Assembly: GCF_002055535.1 (NCBI RefSeq)
Contig: NZ_LN831034.1
Span: 744,001-808,000 of the forward strand
Reading direction: 5' to 3'
From: Streptococcus pyogenes
GTDB lineage: Bacteria; Bacillota; Bacilli; Lactobacillales; Streptococcaceae
DNA: 64,000 nucleotides
The position numbers were made by a program, and so were the translations under genes. Of this stretch, positions 52,142 through 58,218 are shown one piece after another. Numbering within the stretch: position 1 is the first letter of the stretch; the number at the start of each line of letters is the position of its first letter. The notes under the pieces are model-generated. The model searched no databases. It worked only from the letters and a program-made list of their open reading frames with translations, and was not told the DNA's origin.

Positions 52142-53905
52142 ATGGCTGTTGAAATTATTATGCCAAAACTCGGTGTTGACATGCAAGAAGGTGAAATCAT
52201 CGAGTGGAAAAAACAAGAAGGTGATACTGTCAATGAAGGCGATATTCTTCTTGAAATCATGTCAGATAAAACCAATATGGAACTTGAGGCAGAAGACTCA
52301 GGTGTTCTTCTTAAAATTACACGTCAAGCAGGTGAAACAGTACCTGTAACAGAAGTTATCGGATATATCGGTGCTGAAGGTGAATCTGTTGAGGTTTCTA
52401 GCCCAGCTGCTTCAGATGTGAATGTTGCTCGTACAACAGAAGATTTAGAAGCTGCTGGACTTGAAGTGCCAAAAGCACCAGCTCAAGCTGCTTCAGCTGC
52501 ACCAAAAGCTGCACTTGCTGATGATGAGTATGACATCATCGTTGTTGGTGGTGGCCCTGCAGGTTATTATGCAGCTATTCGTGGTGCTCAACTTGGTGGT
52601 AAAATTGCCATCGTTGAGAAATCTGAATTTGGTGGAACTTGCTTGAACGTAGGGTGTATCCCAACCAAAACTTACCTTAAAAATGCTGAAATCCTTGATG
52701 GTATTAAGATTGCAGCAGGACGTGGGATTAACCTTGCCTCAACTAACTATACTATTGACATGGACAAAACAGTTGACTTTAAAAACACCGTTGTTAAAAC
52801 CTTAACAGGCGGCGTTCAAGGTCTTCTAAAAGCTAATAAAGTCACTATCTTTAATGGGCTTGGTCAAGTCAACCCTGACAAGACTGTAACCATTGGGTCA
52901 CAAACCATTAAGGGTCGCAACGTTATCCTTGCTACAGGTTCTAAAGTATCACGTATCAATATCCCAGGTATTGACTCTAAACTTGTCTTAACGTCAGATG
53001 ATATCCTTGACCTCCGTGAAATGCCAAAATCACTAGCAGTTATGGGCGGTGGTGTTGTTGGTATCGAGCTTGGACTTGTTTGGGCATCTTACGGTGTGGA
53101 TGTTACCGTTATTGAAATGGCTGACCGTATTATCCCAGCTATGGATAAAGAAGTCTCTCTTGAACTTCAAAAAATCCTTTCTAAGAAAGGCATGAAGATC
53201 AAAACATCTGTTGGTGTCTCTGAAATTGTTGAAGCAAATAACCAATTGACTTTGAAACTTAACAATGGTGAAGAAGTTGTTGCTGAAAAAGCTCTTCTTT
53301 CTATCGGACGTGTATCACAAATGAACGGTCTGGAAAATCTTAACCTTGAAATGGATCGTAACCGTATCAAAGTTAATGACTACCAAGAGACATCAATTCC
53401 AGGTATCTATGCGCCAGGTGACGTTAACGGAACGAAAATGCTTGCTCACGCTGCTTACCGTATGGGTGAAGTGGCTGCAGAAAATGCGATGCATGGCAAC
53501 ACAACTCGTAAAGCTAACCTTAAATACACTCCAGCAGCTGTTTACACACACCCTGAAGTGGCAATGGTTGGTTTAACTGAAGAACAAGCGCGTGAACAAT
53601 ATGGTGATGTGCTTATTGGTAAAAACAGCTTTACTGGTAATGGACGCGCGATTGCTTCAAATGAAGCACATGGTTTTGTTAAAGTTATTGCTGATGCCAA
53701 ATACCACGAAATCTTAGGTGTTCATATTATTGGTCCAGCTGCAGCTGAGATGATTAACGAAGCAGCTACTATTATGGAATCTGAATTAACCGTTGATGAA
53801 TTGTTATTATCAATTCATGGACACCCAACCTTCTCTGAAGTGATGTACGAAGCCTTTGCAGATGTGCTTGGCGAAGCTATCCATAACCCACCAAAACGTA
53901 AGTAA
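52142..53905 (+). CDS. pdhD: Dihydrolipoamide dehydrogenase (E3) with N-terminal lipoyl domain
   Basis: E3 reoxidises dihydrolipoate and makes NADH. The 587-residue protein begins with a lipoyl domain (about 1-80, lipoyl Lys43 in SDKTNME), a linker of about 45 residues, and then the flavoprotein: GGGPAGYYAAIRG, the redox disulphide GGTCLNVGC, a NAD motif GGGVVGIELG, and HGHPTFSE with the catalytic His-Glu. E3 with its own lipoyl domain is known from pneumococci and other Gram-positives. Start context lacks a clear Shine-Dalgarno. Confidence 0.94.
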   Translation: MAVEIIMPKLGVDMQEGEIIEWKKQEGDTVNEGDILLEIMSDKTNMELEAEDSGVLLKITRQAGETVPVTEVIGYIGAEGESVEVSSPAASDVNVARTTEDLEAAGLEVPKAPAQAASAAPKAALADDEYDIIVVGGGPAGYYAAIRGAQLGGKIAIVEKSEFGGTCLNVGCIPTKTYLKNAEILDGIKIAAGRGINLASTNYTIDMDKTVDFKNTVVKTLTGGVQGLLKANKVTIFNGLGQVNPDKTVTIGSQTIKGRNVILATGSKVSRINIPGIDSKLVLTSDDILDLREMPKSLAVMGGGVVGIELGLVWASYGVDVTVIEMADRIIPAMDKEVSLELQKILSKKGMKIKTSVGVSEIVEANNQLTLKLNNGEEVVAEKALLSIGRVSQMNGLENLNLEMDRNRIKVNDYQETSIPGIYAPGDVNGTKMLAHAAYRMGEVAAENAMHGNTTRKANLKYTPAAVYTHPEVAMVGLTEEQAREQYGDVLIGKNSFTGNGRAIASNEAHGFVKVIADAKYHEILGVHIIGPAAAEMINEAATIMESELTVDELLLSIHGHPTFSEVMYEAFADVLGEAIHNPPKRK

Positions 53906-53976: not shown

Positions 53977-54335
53977 TGAACTGCACCCCAAACGTTAGAT
54001 ATAAAACCCTAACGTTTGGGGTGTTTTTGTATGACATTAAGCTATGAAGATAAGCTAGACATTTAGCGCTAAAAAAACCGAGAGAACTCCGTTTGAAAGA
54101 AGCATCTCTGAAAAGAAGAAGACAAAAAACCATTATAAAGAATGGATAAAGACGAGTTCTGATTAGATTTTCTTTTAAGGACGGCTAAATTGACTCGTTC
54201 TACCTACTATTATCATCGATTATTGCAACAATAAACGTATCAAAATAAAACGAAAAGGACTTAGTCCTCTACAATACAGAACTAAATCCTTTACTTCAAA
54301 TAGAGTAGCCAACTTTTGGGGCTCAGTGCAGTTTC
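53977..54335 (+). mobile_element. Degenerate IS3-family insertion sequence remnant
   Basis: The ends resemble inverted repeats: left GAACTGCACCCCAAACGTTAG (53978 on), right (complement of 54309-54334) AACTGCACTGAGCCCCAAAAG. Between them are scraps of the two transposase frames: MTLSYEDKLDI then a stop at 54031-54066 (orfA start), LTRSTYYYHRLL near 54190-54224 (orfB), and KRKGLSPLQYRTKSF near 54249-54295 (orfB C-terminus). About 360 bases remain of an element that would be over 1 kb, with stops and deletions. It cannot encode a transposase. Confidence 0.75.
53984..54030 (+). terminator. Strong terminator after pdhD, made from the IS end
   Basis: CACCCCAAACGTTAG (53984-53998) pairs perfectly with CTAACGTTTGGGGTG (54009-54023), then TTTTTGT. 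It is within the left end of the IS remnant and is the only good terminator between the PDH operon and hylA. Confidence 0.85.
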
Positions 54336-54389: not shown

Positions 54390-54578
54390 CTAAATCCTTA
54401 AGTCTTTCTTACGAAAGGGTTTTGTGATATGGTTAAAAGAAGCAACTAAAGCTCCACCTAAGAATTCTAAAGAGGAGGACTGATACCCAGTATGCGGTAA
54501 GCGTCGTTGTCTTTTGTGGGGAATTTTATGAGAGTTAAGAGCATTGTTTTTAGCTGCAATTCCTTGATCAGCAAGCTT
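54390..54578 (-). pseudogene. Detached C-terminal wall-anchor tail of hylA
   Basis: Reading on, in frame, past the hylA stop (54579-54581) gives 62 more codons to a TAG at 54390-54392. This tail contains LPHTG (54486-54500), a moderately hydrophobic stretch (SLEFLGGALVASF) and a basic end (KPFRKKDLRI): the layout of an LPXTG sortase signal. It is not translated unless the stop is read through. It shows the ancestral enzyme was probably wall-anchored, as pneumococcal hyaluronate lyase is. Confidence 0.7.
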
Positions 54579-56996
54579 TTATTGTTGATTTTGCCTGACA
54601 GGATGAGGAAAACTATAAAAGCCTTGATGAGAAAGATTATGATTTGAAAACATCGTTGCTTTTTTTCCATAGTGAATGACGTGCATCTGTTGACTATCAT
54701 GATCGTAGACAGCGGCCAGTTTGTCATTGTTTTCTAATAAGTCGATATCAAGCTTGCTAATATAGGTTTCAAATTCTTGACGAGTCATATTTGGAAGCAT
54801 CATATAGGCATAACGATCGCCATCTTGAGTATGGTTTTGCATGATAGTGATAAAGGTATTTGAAACTTCTTTGATGGCTTCTGGTGATTTGTCATCAGCT
54901 TTTATGTTTTGCCATTTCCCTGTTTGAAGTGCCTTACTTATGCTAAGTGTTGTTGGCTTGAAGAAGTAGTAACCAATATTTTGAGCGGGATCATCACTTT
55001 CAAGGAAAATACTTTTAGTGTTTGTAAAATCAACTAGCTGATTATTCAAGTCAACGGGTTGATTGTTAACATAAGAACAGTAAGGGTACTTTTGATTTTC
55101 TTTTCGTTGTTCAATAGTTGTATACGCCTTGTGAGATGATTGGTTTTTGATATTGCTACCAACAAAGATTATTTTGTTTCCTAAGATAAACCACCCTTTA
55201 TTGAGGGTGAGGCTTTTATTCCAATTAGTGAAGGTCATAGCAGCTAGAGCACTTGTGTTATTAAGTTTTTTACTTGCAACAAAAGCGTCATCAGAGAGAC
55301 CAGTCATGCCAACTTGTTGATAGTTCGTTTTAATATTCTCAGGAGTTCCCTCTAGTGGTTTTTGCTCAGTTTCTGTGGTTCCAGGTAAGCGGTAGGGATT
55401 TACCGTTGCCCAATAGTTTTCACTGTAGTGTCCTAAATCGTTATTGTATAGGTAAAACATTCCATCAGAAGTAAACCAGCCATGAAGATTTTCATTATTC
55501 ATAGCTTCATAATTTTGAGTTCGATTCGAAAACATTGATAGGCCAAAAGCAAAATCGTGTTTATTATTATATAGTGCCAATTTATCCATACTATTGAAAC
55601 TAGCTACGTAACTATCAAGTTTTTGGACTGGAACAGAAGTATCACTTAGTAGTTCTTTCATAAGTTTGATATCGTGATAGGTTTTCAAATTATCATAGAC
55701 ATTGTAAAAAGCATTCCCTTGTGTGACGAGTGTTTTTATACGTGTTTTAAGTGCCAAACGGTGAGGCTCTTCAGACATGTCAGCAATACGTAAAATAGCA
55801 CGAAGTGCTTCAATGCCAGCAACATGAGATTGGGCATTAAAACGACTGATAGAACGCCCTCGAGTCATATCCATCATTTCTCCACGAACGATGATAGGGA
55901 AAAAAGAATGGTTAATCCAATGATAGATAGTAGCCATTTTATCCGCTTTTATAGGAGACTTTGTTTTTTGAATAATAGGAATTAATTGCGATAAGCCATC
56001 TATAAGCACATTACCGTAAGCTCCAGTGTAAGCAATGCCTTTTTTATAAAGTGGACTTTGAGCGTTAGTAACCACGTGATCAATTAAAGAACCGTCTTGG
56101 TAAAAACCATTTCCTTCATCAACTAGCGTGAAAACTTTCTCAATTGCTTTGATTGTATCACTAATTTCGAGATCATCTTTACGAAGAATACCGGAAATGA
56201 GTTTAACACGCCCCATATCAATTAAATTTCCGCTATTGGCTTCAAAAGGTGAAAAATTGGCAGCGCGAACCCTAAAACGAGTAGGGTCAGGCACAAATTT
56301 TTCGATTGGAGCTGTGTATTTAAGAATTTCTTCTTGAGTAAAATAAGGATACATCAAGGATAAGGTATTATTAATAGCACGAGGAGTTCCAATTTCATAA
56401 ACCCACCAATTTTCTTTGTTTTCTTTTCCAGTTGTTTGATGATTTTCACGATCTAGATTATAAGCGTGTTCATACATGAAGGCCATACCGTCTTTTACAA
56501 TAGCAATAGCTTTACTATCTTGATAATAGCATGATTCAGGATTAGTGATCTGTTTTGCTATTTTTTCAATATTGCGGTAAGTTTTCGTGATATTAGCAGA
56601 AGCGGAATAATCCTTTGCATGTTCCCAAAGGTAAGTTCTATTTTCGTGGTCAGGCCCTTGATAGCTTTTAATAATGTTTTGAGCATCCTTTTCAGCTTTA
56701 TTATGAAAAGTGACCATGTCAGGATTGGTTTTATCATAAGCATCGTTGCCTGCGATAATACTGTTCCATTGGTCTAACAATTCAGTATAGTAGTCTTTTT
56801 GTTGTGGCTGTACTACCTTTTTTTCGCTATCTGTAGTAGTGAGCGTTTGCGTTTGAAAGTAAGTATTATTAGGTTCTGAATTTGAAGTCAGTGTATCGGC
56901 ATAAATGGCAGTTCCTTGGCCCATCATAGCAAAGCTAAGGAATAGGTTTGAATAAAGTAGTAATTGTTTATGGTGTGTGCAAAAATAAGTATTCAC
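54579..56996 (-). CDS. hylA: Hyaluronate lyase HylA (D199V form, likely inactive)
   Basis: A polysaccharide lyase family 8 protein that would cleave hyaluronan outside the cell. The GTG at 56996 (GGAGG upstream) gives 805 residues with an N-terminal signal-like segment (LLLYSNLFLSFAMMG, then a cut near IYADT). The catalytic centre is recognisable: His307 in IDH, Tyr327 in TGAYG and the RGRSISR arginines. Residue 199, in NWWxYEIGTPRA, is Val (codon at 56400-56402); Asp is the active-enzyme residue and D199V is reported to inactivate HylA in most M types. An in-frame stop also removes a C-terminal LPHTG tail. It is opposite to its neighbours, between PDH and lplA. Confidence 0.93.
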   Translation of the reverse strand: MNTYFCTHHKQLLLYSNLFLSFAMMGQGTAIYADTLTSNSEPNNTYFQTQTLTTTDSEKKVVQPQQKDYYTELLDQWNSIIAGNDAYDKTNPDMVTFHNKAEKDAQNIIKSYQGPDHENRTYLWEHAKDYSASANITKTYRNIEKIAKQITNPESCYYQDSKAIAIVKDGMAFMYEHAYNLDRENHQTTGKENKENWWVYEIGTPRAINNTLSLMYPYFTQEEILKYTAPIEKFVPDPTRFRVRAANFSPFEANSGNLIDMGRVKLISGILRKDDLEISDTIKAIEKVFTLVDEGNGFYQDGSLIDHVVTNAQSPLYKKGIAYTGAYGNVLIDGLSQLIPIIQKTKSPIKADKMATIYHWINHSFFPIIVRGEMMDMTRGRSISRFNAQSHVAGIEALRAILRIADMSEEPHRLALKTRIKTLVTQGNAFYNVYDNLKTYHDIKLMKELLSDTSVPVQKLDSYVASFNSMDKLALYNNKHDFAFGLSMFSNRTQNYEAMNNENLHGWFTSDGMFYLYNNDLGHYSENYWATVNPYRLPGTTETEQKPLEGTPENIKTNYQQVGMTGLSDDAFVASKKLNNTSALAAMTFTNWNKSLTLNKGWFILGNKIIFVGSNIKNQSSHKAYTTIEQRKENQKYPYCSYVNNQPVDLNNQLVDFTNTKSIFLESDDPAQNIGYYFFKPTTLSISKALQTGKWQNIKADDKSPEAIKEVSNTFITIMQNHTQDGDRYAYMMLPNMTRQEFETYISKLDIDLLENNDKLAAVYDHDSQQMHVIHYGKKATMFSNHNLSHQGFYSFPHPVRQNQQ

Positions 56997-57228: not shown

Positions 57229-58218
57229 ATGAAATACATCGTTAACAAAAGTCACAATCCTGCCTTTAACATCGCTTTGGAAGCCTATGCTTTTAGAGAA
57301 CTAGTGGAAGAAGACGAATTGTTTATCCTTTGGATCAATGAGCCAGCTATTATTATTGGCAAACATCAAAATACCATTCAAGAAATCAATAAAGAATACA
57401 TTGATGAACATGGTATTCATGTTGTGCGACGTTTATCTGGTGGTGGTGCGGTTTATCATGATTTGAATAACTTGAACTACACTATCATTTCAAATAAAAC
57501 AGCGGAAGGCGCATTTGATTTCAAAACCTTCTCACAACCTGTGATTGCGACTTTAGCTGATTTGGGTGTAACAGCCAACTTTACAGGCCGTAATGATATT
57601 GAAATTGATGGTAAAAAAATCTGCGGTAATGCTCAAGCTTACTACAAAGGTCGCATGATGCACCATGGTTGCCTTTTGTTTGATGTGGATATGACCGTTC
57701 TTGGCGATGCTCTTAAGGTAAGTAAGGACAAGATTGAGTCTAAAGGAGTGAAGTCTGTTCGTGCTCGCGTGACCAATATTTTAAATGAATTACCAGAAAA
57801 AATTACCGTTGAGGAATTTTCAGATAAAATCTTGGCCAAGATGAAAGAAACGTACCCAGACATGACAGAATATGTCTTGTCAGAGGATGAGTTGGCTAAG
57901 ATTGAACAATCTGCCAAAGAGCAATTTGGTAGCTGGGATTGGACCTACGGCAAAGCGCCAGAATATACGATTGAACGCAATGTTCGTTACCCTGCAGGTA
58001 AAATTTCAACCTTTGCAAATGTTGAAAATTCTATCATTAAAAACCTTAAAATCTATGGTGATTTCTTTGGAATCAAAGATGTGCAAGACATTGAGAACTT
58101 ATTAATTGGTTGTAAATATGAGTACCGTGATGTTTTTGAACGTTTAAAAACGATTGATACGACCCAGTACTTCTCACGCATGACCGTTGAAGAAGTTGCT
58201 AAAGCTATTGTTTCTTAG
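57229..58218 (+). CDS. lplA: Lipoate-protein ligase A
   Basis: LplA activates lipoate with ATP and attaches it to lipoyl-domain lysines, here most likely Lys43 of E2 and E3. The 329-residue protein has the lipoyl-AMP loop RRLSGGGAVYHD (residues 67-78), the GNAQAYYKGRMMHHGCLLF block and the C-terminal accessory domain. The start follows GAAAGGA. In pneumococci lplA sits directly beside the PDH genes; here hylA and an IS scar lie between. Confidence 0.94.
   Translation: MKYIVNKSHNPAFNIALEAYAFRELVEEDELFILWINEPAIIIGKHQNTIQEINKEYIDEHGIHVVRRLSGGGAVYHDLNNLNYTIISNKTAEGAFDFKTFSQPVIATLADLGVTANFTGRNDIEIDGKKICGNAQAYYKGRMMHHGCLLFDVDMTVLGDALKVSKDKIESKGVKSVRARVTNILNELPEKITVEEFSDKILAKMKETYPDMTEYVLSEDELAKIEQSAKEQFGSWDWTYGKAPEYTIERNVRYPAGKISTFANVENSIIKNLKIYGDFFGIKDVQDIENLLIGCKYEYRDVFERLKTIDTTQYFSRMTVEEVAKAIVS

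What the first reader, a model, noticed from the sequence alone, without database searches (positions are those of the whole stretch)
54390..54581. An in-frame stop strips an LPXTG wall anchor from HylA
Reading in frame past the TAA at 54579-54581 gives 62 codons with LPHTG at 54486-54500, a hydrophobic stretch and a basic tail ending at TAG 54390. Frame is preserved over the whole tail, so the loss is one nonsense change, not a rearrangement. The ancestral enzyme was probably sortase-anchored and the present one would be released. This is a second lesion in addition to D199V.
Basis: seen in the sequence. Interest (0 to 1): 0.75.

Follow-up and report, generated by a model that had tools for sequence, protein, structure and literature searches.

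The report
Streptococcal hyaluronidase cut off its anchor
In this Streptococcus pyogenes genome the gene for a hyaluronan-degrading enzyme ends early at a stop codon, and the leftover DNA just after it still spells what looks like the cell-wall anchor that other copies keep; it is a tidy case of gene decay rather than a new kind of system.

Summary
HylA (805 codons, minus strand) stops at 54579-54581, and its frame stays open for 62 more codons to TAG 54390-54392, with LPHTG at 54486-54500 and a basic end. Of 20,000 shuffles none was both open and LPxTG-bearing.

The tail looks like the remnant of a sortase anchor. The syntenic S. castoreus orthologue ends in one, as do 14 of 19 relatives whose loci were returned. 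Uninterrupted copies exist: protein cluster P0122 and, judging by published primers, the serotype M4 gene (PMC4231703). The window also carries Val199, reported as inactivating.

Caveats: the tail has the weakest hydrophobic stretch of 34 rows compared, scores below curated anchor cut-offs, and M4 HylA is itself called secreted, so anchoring is unproven.

Beyond the finding: three further protein clusters suggest frame changes in the same tail, and four relatives share an in-frame stop inside the lyase. Interest is modest.

The parts
54582..56996 (-). hylA coding part still read: 805 codons from GTG 56996, with GGAGGA just upstream; Lyase_8_N at residues 77-422, Lyase_8 at 466-737; Val at residue 199
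54579..54581 (-). in-frame TAA that ends HylA between the lyase and the tail
   Evidence: proteins P0002, P0004 and P0126 end at the same residues; published M1 primer ends here
54390..54578 (-). untranslated in-frame tail, 62 codons plus TAG: linker, LPXTG-type motif, weak hydrophobic stretch, basic end
54486..54500 (-). LPHTG motif, 36 residues from the end of the tail
54390..54392 (-). TAG that ends the tail; a published M4 hylA cloning primer matches 54390-54412
54254..54270 (-). terminator-like hairpin with T run beyond the tail (consensus match only, no evidence of function)
54220..54330 (.). IS-like DNA downstream of the tail, 78% and 73% identical to mobile-element DNA in two phage records

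Best explanation
The window holds the short form of hylA, the same 3' end as the published M1 copy. The ancestral gene encoded a family 8 polysaccharide lyase with a C-terminal LPXTG sorting signal. One nonsense change between the enzyme and that signal now ends the protein 62 codons early, so the tail is no longer made. The protein should still be exported, but with nothing for sortase to join to the wall it should be released. The allele also carries the residue-199 substitution reported to abolish activity, so the gene looks like one decaying step by step. Shown here: the tail, its likeness to the anchor of the closest related lyase, a tail-bearing natural copy, and lyase domains that end before the stop. 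Inferred: past anchoring, present export and release, and the order and cause of the two lesions.
For: Tail open, with the motif at the usual distance from the end, not matched in 20,000 shuffles. The only Pfam match of the tail at E up to 10 is the LPXTG anchor model; both NCBIfam matches are LPXTG-type models. The S. castoreus orthologue, with the same neighbours lplA and acoL, has a similar C-terminus. 14 of the 19 relatives whose loci were returned have an anchor in the same open frame. Uninterrupted tail in cluster P0122, 97% identical. Primers in PMC4231703: one named for M4 matches the end of the tail, a recombinant M4 primer lies in the tail, the M1 primer ends at the window's stop; [quoted passage not shown] Solved lyases align over query residues 67-794 of 805. 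At position 199 Asp is found in 7 of 7 other-species proteins checked (P0003, P0005-P0010) and in 22 of 23 loci L002-L024, duplicates included (L022 has Tyr; L021 read from its second piece); Val in the window, P0002 and P0004. Three sortase-family genes in the genome.
Against: Weakest hydrophobic stretch of 34 rows. Profile scores below curated cut-offs, and no Pfam match at E up to 1 for the uninterrupted copy P0122. Blastp of the tail against P0003 did not find the anchor. With the motif kept in place the likeness to L002 (244 of 2000) and L018 (1307 of 2000) is no better than chance. M4 HylA is called secreted (PMC4231703), and HylA or a hyaluronate lyase is listed in the M4 vesicle proteome and exoproteome (PMC8489961, passages). 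No other S. pyogenes genome could be read at DNA level here, and the frequency of the stop in the species was not measured.
Confidence: 0.85

Rival explanations
1. The tail was already a poor or non-functional sorting signal in S. pyogenes, so the enzyme was released before the stop arose and the stop was neutral.
For: Lowest 15-residue hydropathy of 34 rows, with N and H inside the stretch. Sub-threshold scores. M4 HylA, which appears to have the tail, is described as secreted. Against S. castoreus the last 45 codons of the tail have pN 0.497, more than any 45-codon stretch of the body tabulated (0.055-0.361).
Against: The S. castoreus orthologue has the next weakest stretch and also scores below the TIGR01167 cut-off, so this lyase lineage may tolerate weak signals. 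The uninterrupted copy keeps motif, stretch and basic end.
Confidence: 0.25
2. The stop is the natural end of HylA and the open tail with LPHTG is chance.
For: The short form represents a cluster of 1873 member sequences; the lengths of the other members were not seen.
Against: 0 of 20,000 shuffles; alignment to S. castoreus; uninterrupted copy and M4 primers.
Confidence: 0.02
3. The stop is a sequencing or assembly error.
For: None found.
Against: The genome length equals that of the type strain, for which two independent assemblies were identical (PMC7363880, passages; identity of the genome inferred from length). Proteins P0002, P0004 and P0126 and the published M1 primer end at the same place.
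Confidence: 0.01
4. Stop-codon readthrough makes a minor anchored form.
For: The frame runs on beyond the stop.
Against: Nothing seen here points to readthrough; it was not tested by any search. Other sequences appear to carry frame changes in the tail that readthrough would not bypass.
Confidence: 0.03

Closest known systems
HylA of serotype M4 S. pyogenes (PMC4231703, passages)
   Same: Same gene; the primer stretches searched match the window's tail exactly
   Different: Judging by its primers the M4 copy runs through the tail to its TAG, and it is reported active; the window's copy ends at the earlier stop and carries Val199
S. castoreus PL8 lyase (P0003, L004)
   Same: Orthologue with the same neighbours, 73-76% identical, with an LPXTG-type C-terminus similar to the window's tail
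   Different: Uninterrupted; motif variant LPKAG and longer linker
LPXTG-anchored hyaluronate lyase of S. pneumoniae (PL8, PDB 1c82)
   Same: Same lyase family: query residues 67-794 align with 4-692 of the 731-residue chain; database names call pneumococcal proteins LPXTG-anchored
   Different: Longer, with further domains in the listing; the window's enzyme is shorter and without its tail
PL8 lyases of four related genomes with an in-frame stop (L020-L023)
   Same: In-frame stop; in two of them (L022, L023) a same-frame piece with LPQTG follows directly
   Different: Stop lies further upstream, inside the C-terminal part of the enzyme

Membership tests
LPXTG cell-wall sorting signal (PF00746 / TIGR01167) | LPXTG motif about 30-40 residues from the end | tested here: met
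   LPHTG 36 residues from the end; own-genome rows 33-36
LPXTG cell-wall sorting signal (PF00746 / TIGR01167) | Hydrophobic stretch after the motif | tested here: inconclusive
   Present but weakest of 34 rows
LPXTG cell-wall sorting signal (PF00746 / TIGR01167) | Basic C-terminal end | tested here: met
   K and R residues close to the TAG
LPXTG cell-wall sorting signal (PF00746 / TIGR01167) | Score over the curated cut-off | tested here: not met
   PF00746 14.1 of 20 bits; TIGR01167 12.6 of 15.9 bits. Hence called a remnant, not a member
LPXTG cell-wall sorting signal (PF00746 / TIGR01167) | Part of the translated protein | tested here: not met
   Lies after an in-frame TAA
LPXTG cell-wall sorting signal (PF00746 / TIGR01167) | Joined to the wall by sortase | not testable with these tools
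   Three sortase-family genes in the genome; no linkage data
Polysaccharide lyase family 8 | Lyase_8_N and Lyase_8 domains | tested here: met
   326.9 and 208.6 bits, cut-offs 24 and 27
Polysaccharide lyase family 8 | Activity on hyaluronan | not testable with these tools
   Val199 form reported inactive (PMC4231703, passages); Val199 seen here
NCBIfam hyaluronate lyase HylB equivalog (NF053732) | Score over the curated cut-off | tested here: not met
   381.2 of 1350 bits; a relative, not this equivalog

The most novel reading that the evidence does not exclude
Loss of the wall anchor of this lyase is recurrent, not a single accident: in S. pyogenes the same tail appears to be broken by the window's stop, by a frame change at the motif (P0123, P0124) and by another just upstream of it in a copy without the window's stop (P0125), and related species share their own in-frame stop in the lyase before the anchor. 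If these are independent, streptococci that live with their own or the host's hyaluronan may be under selection to take this enzyme off their surface, with release and inactivation as two routes to the same end.
Probability: 0.2. Interest if true: 0.6.

Novelty: new member of a known kind. Interest (0 to 1): 0.36.

Why it matters
It adds a second, separable lesion to a gene whose inactivation is explained in print by conflict between hyaluronan capsule and hyaluronidase (PMC4231703, passages), and it suggests that the M1 and M4 forms of HylA differ in predicted location as well as activity. Comparisons that treat residue 199 as the only difference would overlook this. The order of the two lesions across lineages would say whether release or inactivation came first.

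Tried and rejected
Blastp of the tail against the whole S. castoreus protein failed to find the anchor; alignment to the C-terminal 45 residues with shuffles was used instead. Seven relatives were tried. Plain shuffles reaching the score, of 2000: L004 0, L003 0, L009 0, L014 0, L007 1, L002 5, L018 143. With the motif kept in place: L003 1, L004 2, L014 7, L007 23, L009 25, L002 244, L018 1307. Codon rates: body against S. castoreus dN 0.179, dS 1.609; tail synonymous changes saturated, so no verdict on selection in the tail; the same computation failed through a slicing slip and was discarded. A viral-contig scan for an 18-base piece of the tail gave one hit, L039, with no blastn match to the hylA region: a chance match. 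A genus search with the tail matched the window and eight other genomes (nine places, E 0.002-0.009), which were not followed. Readthrough, chance and sequencing error were weighed and rejected (see rivals). Passages of PMC7541959, PMC7571705, PMC13190766, PMC13113925, PMC3178561, PMC6951797 and PMC11596691 were opened without bearing on the tail, except that PMC13113925 says Gram-positive hyaluronidases are secreted or LPxTG-anchored. Capsule genes and serotype of the window's strain were not tested.

Full report
Where it is. The window lies in a 1,914,862-base single-contig genome. That length equals the closed genome of the S. pyogenes type strain NCTC 8198 = CCUG 4207, for which two independent assemblies were identical (PMC7363880, passages); the identification by length is an inference. 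hylA runs on the minus strand from GTG 56996 to TAA 54579-54581, 805 codons, and is the one place in the genome matched by its own protein at E up to 0.001. Its neighbours are lplA and the acoC/acoL genes (names mine, from sequence and recall).

The observation. After the TAA the same frame continues for 62 codons to TAG 54390-54392. LPHTG is at 54486-54500. Shuffling the tail 20,000 times with dinucleotides kept gave 466 open frames, 16 with LPxTG and none with both; of 53 closed frames of at least 150 codons in the window, two have an in-frame continuation of at least 62 codons and only this one has the motif. The motif is 36 residues from the end, against 33-36 for 14 rows read at the own-genome anchor loci (the L038 row is a neighbouring frame and not the profile match itself, and L026 and L027 end alike).

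Is the tail a former anchor. Pfam returns one family for it at E up to 10, the LPXTG anchor PF00746, at 14.1 bits and E 0.047, below the cut-off of 20. NCBIfam returns two LPXTG-type models, both below cut-off: NF053819 18.1 of 47 bits and TIGR01167 12.6 of 15.9 bits. Anchored relatives vary: PF00746 passes its cut-off in P0006, P0008 and P0010, falls short in P0005 and P0009, and is not reported for the S. castoreus protein P0003, which also stays below TIGR01167 (12.3 bits). S. castoreus is the closest orthologue found (73-76% identical, with lplA and acoL on either side as here); it ends in LPKAG, a hydrophobic stretch and a basic end. The tail matches that C-terminus better than all 2000 plain shuffles and all but 2 of 2000 that keep the motif in place. 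For six other relatives the motif-preserving counts range from 1 to 1307 of 2000, so part of the likeness elsewhere is the motif alone. Of 284 genus genomes searched, 40 including this one have a PL8 match. Loci were returned for the best 19 of the 39 others (L006-L024): 14 have an LPXTG-type anchor in the same open frame, four are interrupted (L020-L023) and one has none (L024). L005 (S. halichoeri) also has none in its longest frame; L002-L004 end like L008, L019 and L006.

Weakness of the signal. Among 34 rows (tail, 14 from own-genome loci, 19 from PL8 loci, duplicates included) the tail has the lowest 15-residue hydropathy, 1.17; S. castoreus is next at 1.59 and the rest lie at 1.69-2.89. 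Either the lineage has a naturally weak signal or the tail has eroded. The uninterrupted copy P0122 has the same stretch, which speaks against erosion after the stop. P0122 has no Pfam match at E up to 1.

Tail-bearing copies. A search with the tail alone returned four proteins. P0122 (93 aa, 3 member sequences) reads from the end of the lyase straight into the tail, 97% identical to the window's tail, with the motif as LPRTG. P0123 (1 member, 2 contigs) and P0124 (3 members, 59 contigs) join another reading frame of this stretch (the 54467-54727 frame) to the end of the tail, which suggests a frame change at the motif. P0125 (1 member, 1 contig) lacks the window's stop but changes frame just before the motif; as a single contig it may be an error. 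A second search added P0126 (87 aa, 11 members), a C-terminal lyase fragment that ends at the window's stop. These are protein letters only: no DNA was seen for them, no strain is named, and whether the strains of P0123 and P0124 also carry the stop is not known.

In print. [quoted passage not shown] The gene-specific part of a cloning primer named for M4 matches window 54390-54412, the end of the tail with its TAG; the paper's text lists it as a forward primer, but its letters belong to the 3' end, so I take the labels to be mixed up. The 18 terminal bases of the recombinant M4 reverse primer match 54494-54511 inside the tail. The gene-specific part of the reverse primer that ends at a stop matches 54579-54599, the window's stop, as does the recombinant M1 reverse primer by eye. 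So the M4 gene appears to have been treated as running through the tail and the M1 gene as ending before it. In the passages seen the difference is not discussed, and HylA is called secreted. The paper attributes inactivity to residue 199; the window has Val there, as do P0002 and P0004, while Asp stands in 7 of 7 other-species proteins and in 22 of 23 loci checked, duplicates included. PMC7769053 (passages) reports the substitution in 161 of 161 emm89 strains and does not mention the tail in those passages. PMC8489961 (passages) names HylA among proteins lowered in vesicles of an M4 prsA1/A2 mutant and a hyaluronate lyase as raised in a prsA1 mutant, which does not settle its usual location.

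Mechanism. The stop follows the lyase domains: the two Pfam domains end at residue 737 of 805, and solved lyases align up to residue 794, although the last 39 of 731 residues of the 1c82 chain and the last 27 of 814 of 1f1s are not matched. So the stop removes the sorting signal and little, if anything, of the enzyme. Export should be unaffected (the N-terminal signal was not tested by a program) and wall linkage should be lost. With residue 199 also changed, the allele makes, by inference, a released and inactive protein. The body shows constraint against S. castoreus (dN 0.179, dS 1.609); the tail diverges faster, with synonymous sites saturated, so selection on it could not be measured.

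Wider pattern. In one search, 7 of the 40 matching genomes show stops inside the PL8 match. Four of them (L020-L023) have a piece ending at the same residues; in L022 and L023 a same-frame 161-codon piece with LPQTG follows directly; no such piece was listed for L020 and L021. That separation lies inside the enzyme's C-terminal part, so it is a parallel in kind, not the same lesion. Within S. pyogenes, P0004 is a HylA shorter by 118 residues through an internal gap, and P0126, called from an inner Met, hints at further breaks upstream. The gene may be decaying in several lineages.

Verdict. The event is an ordinary nonsense loss of a probable surface anchor in a decaying gene, half visible in published primers; the interest lies in the pairing of two lesions and in the hint of recurrent loss.

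Noticed in passing
L020-L023 (G227, G159, G237, G226): Four related genomes share an in-frame stop at the same place in their PL8 lyase; in L022 and L023 a 161-codon same-frame piece with LPQTG follows it.
   Followed up: partly
window 54220-54330: IS-like DNA just downstream of the hylA tail, 78% and 73% identical to mobile-element DNA in two phage records; S. castoreus has a different 132-codon frame between hyl and acoL.
   Followed up: no
proteins P0123, P0124, P0125: Other sequences of the same tail appear to carry frame changes at or just before the motif.
   Followed up: partly
proteins P0126 and P0004: Further damaged HylA forms: an 87-aa C-terminal fragment called from an inner Met (11 members) and a 687-aa form shorter by 118 residues.
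   Followed up: no
window 52142-53905, 54582-56996 and 57229-58218 versus L004: acoL is 97% and lplA 93% identical to S. castoreus while HylA between them is only about 73%: the lyase evolves much faster than its neighbours.
   Followed up: no
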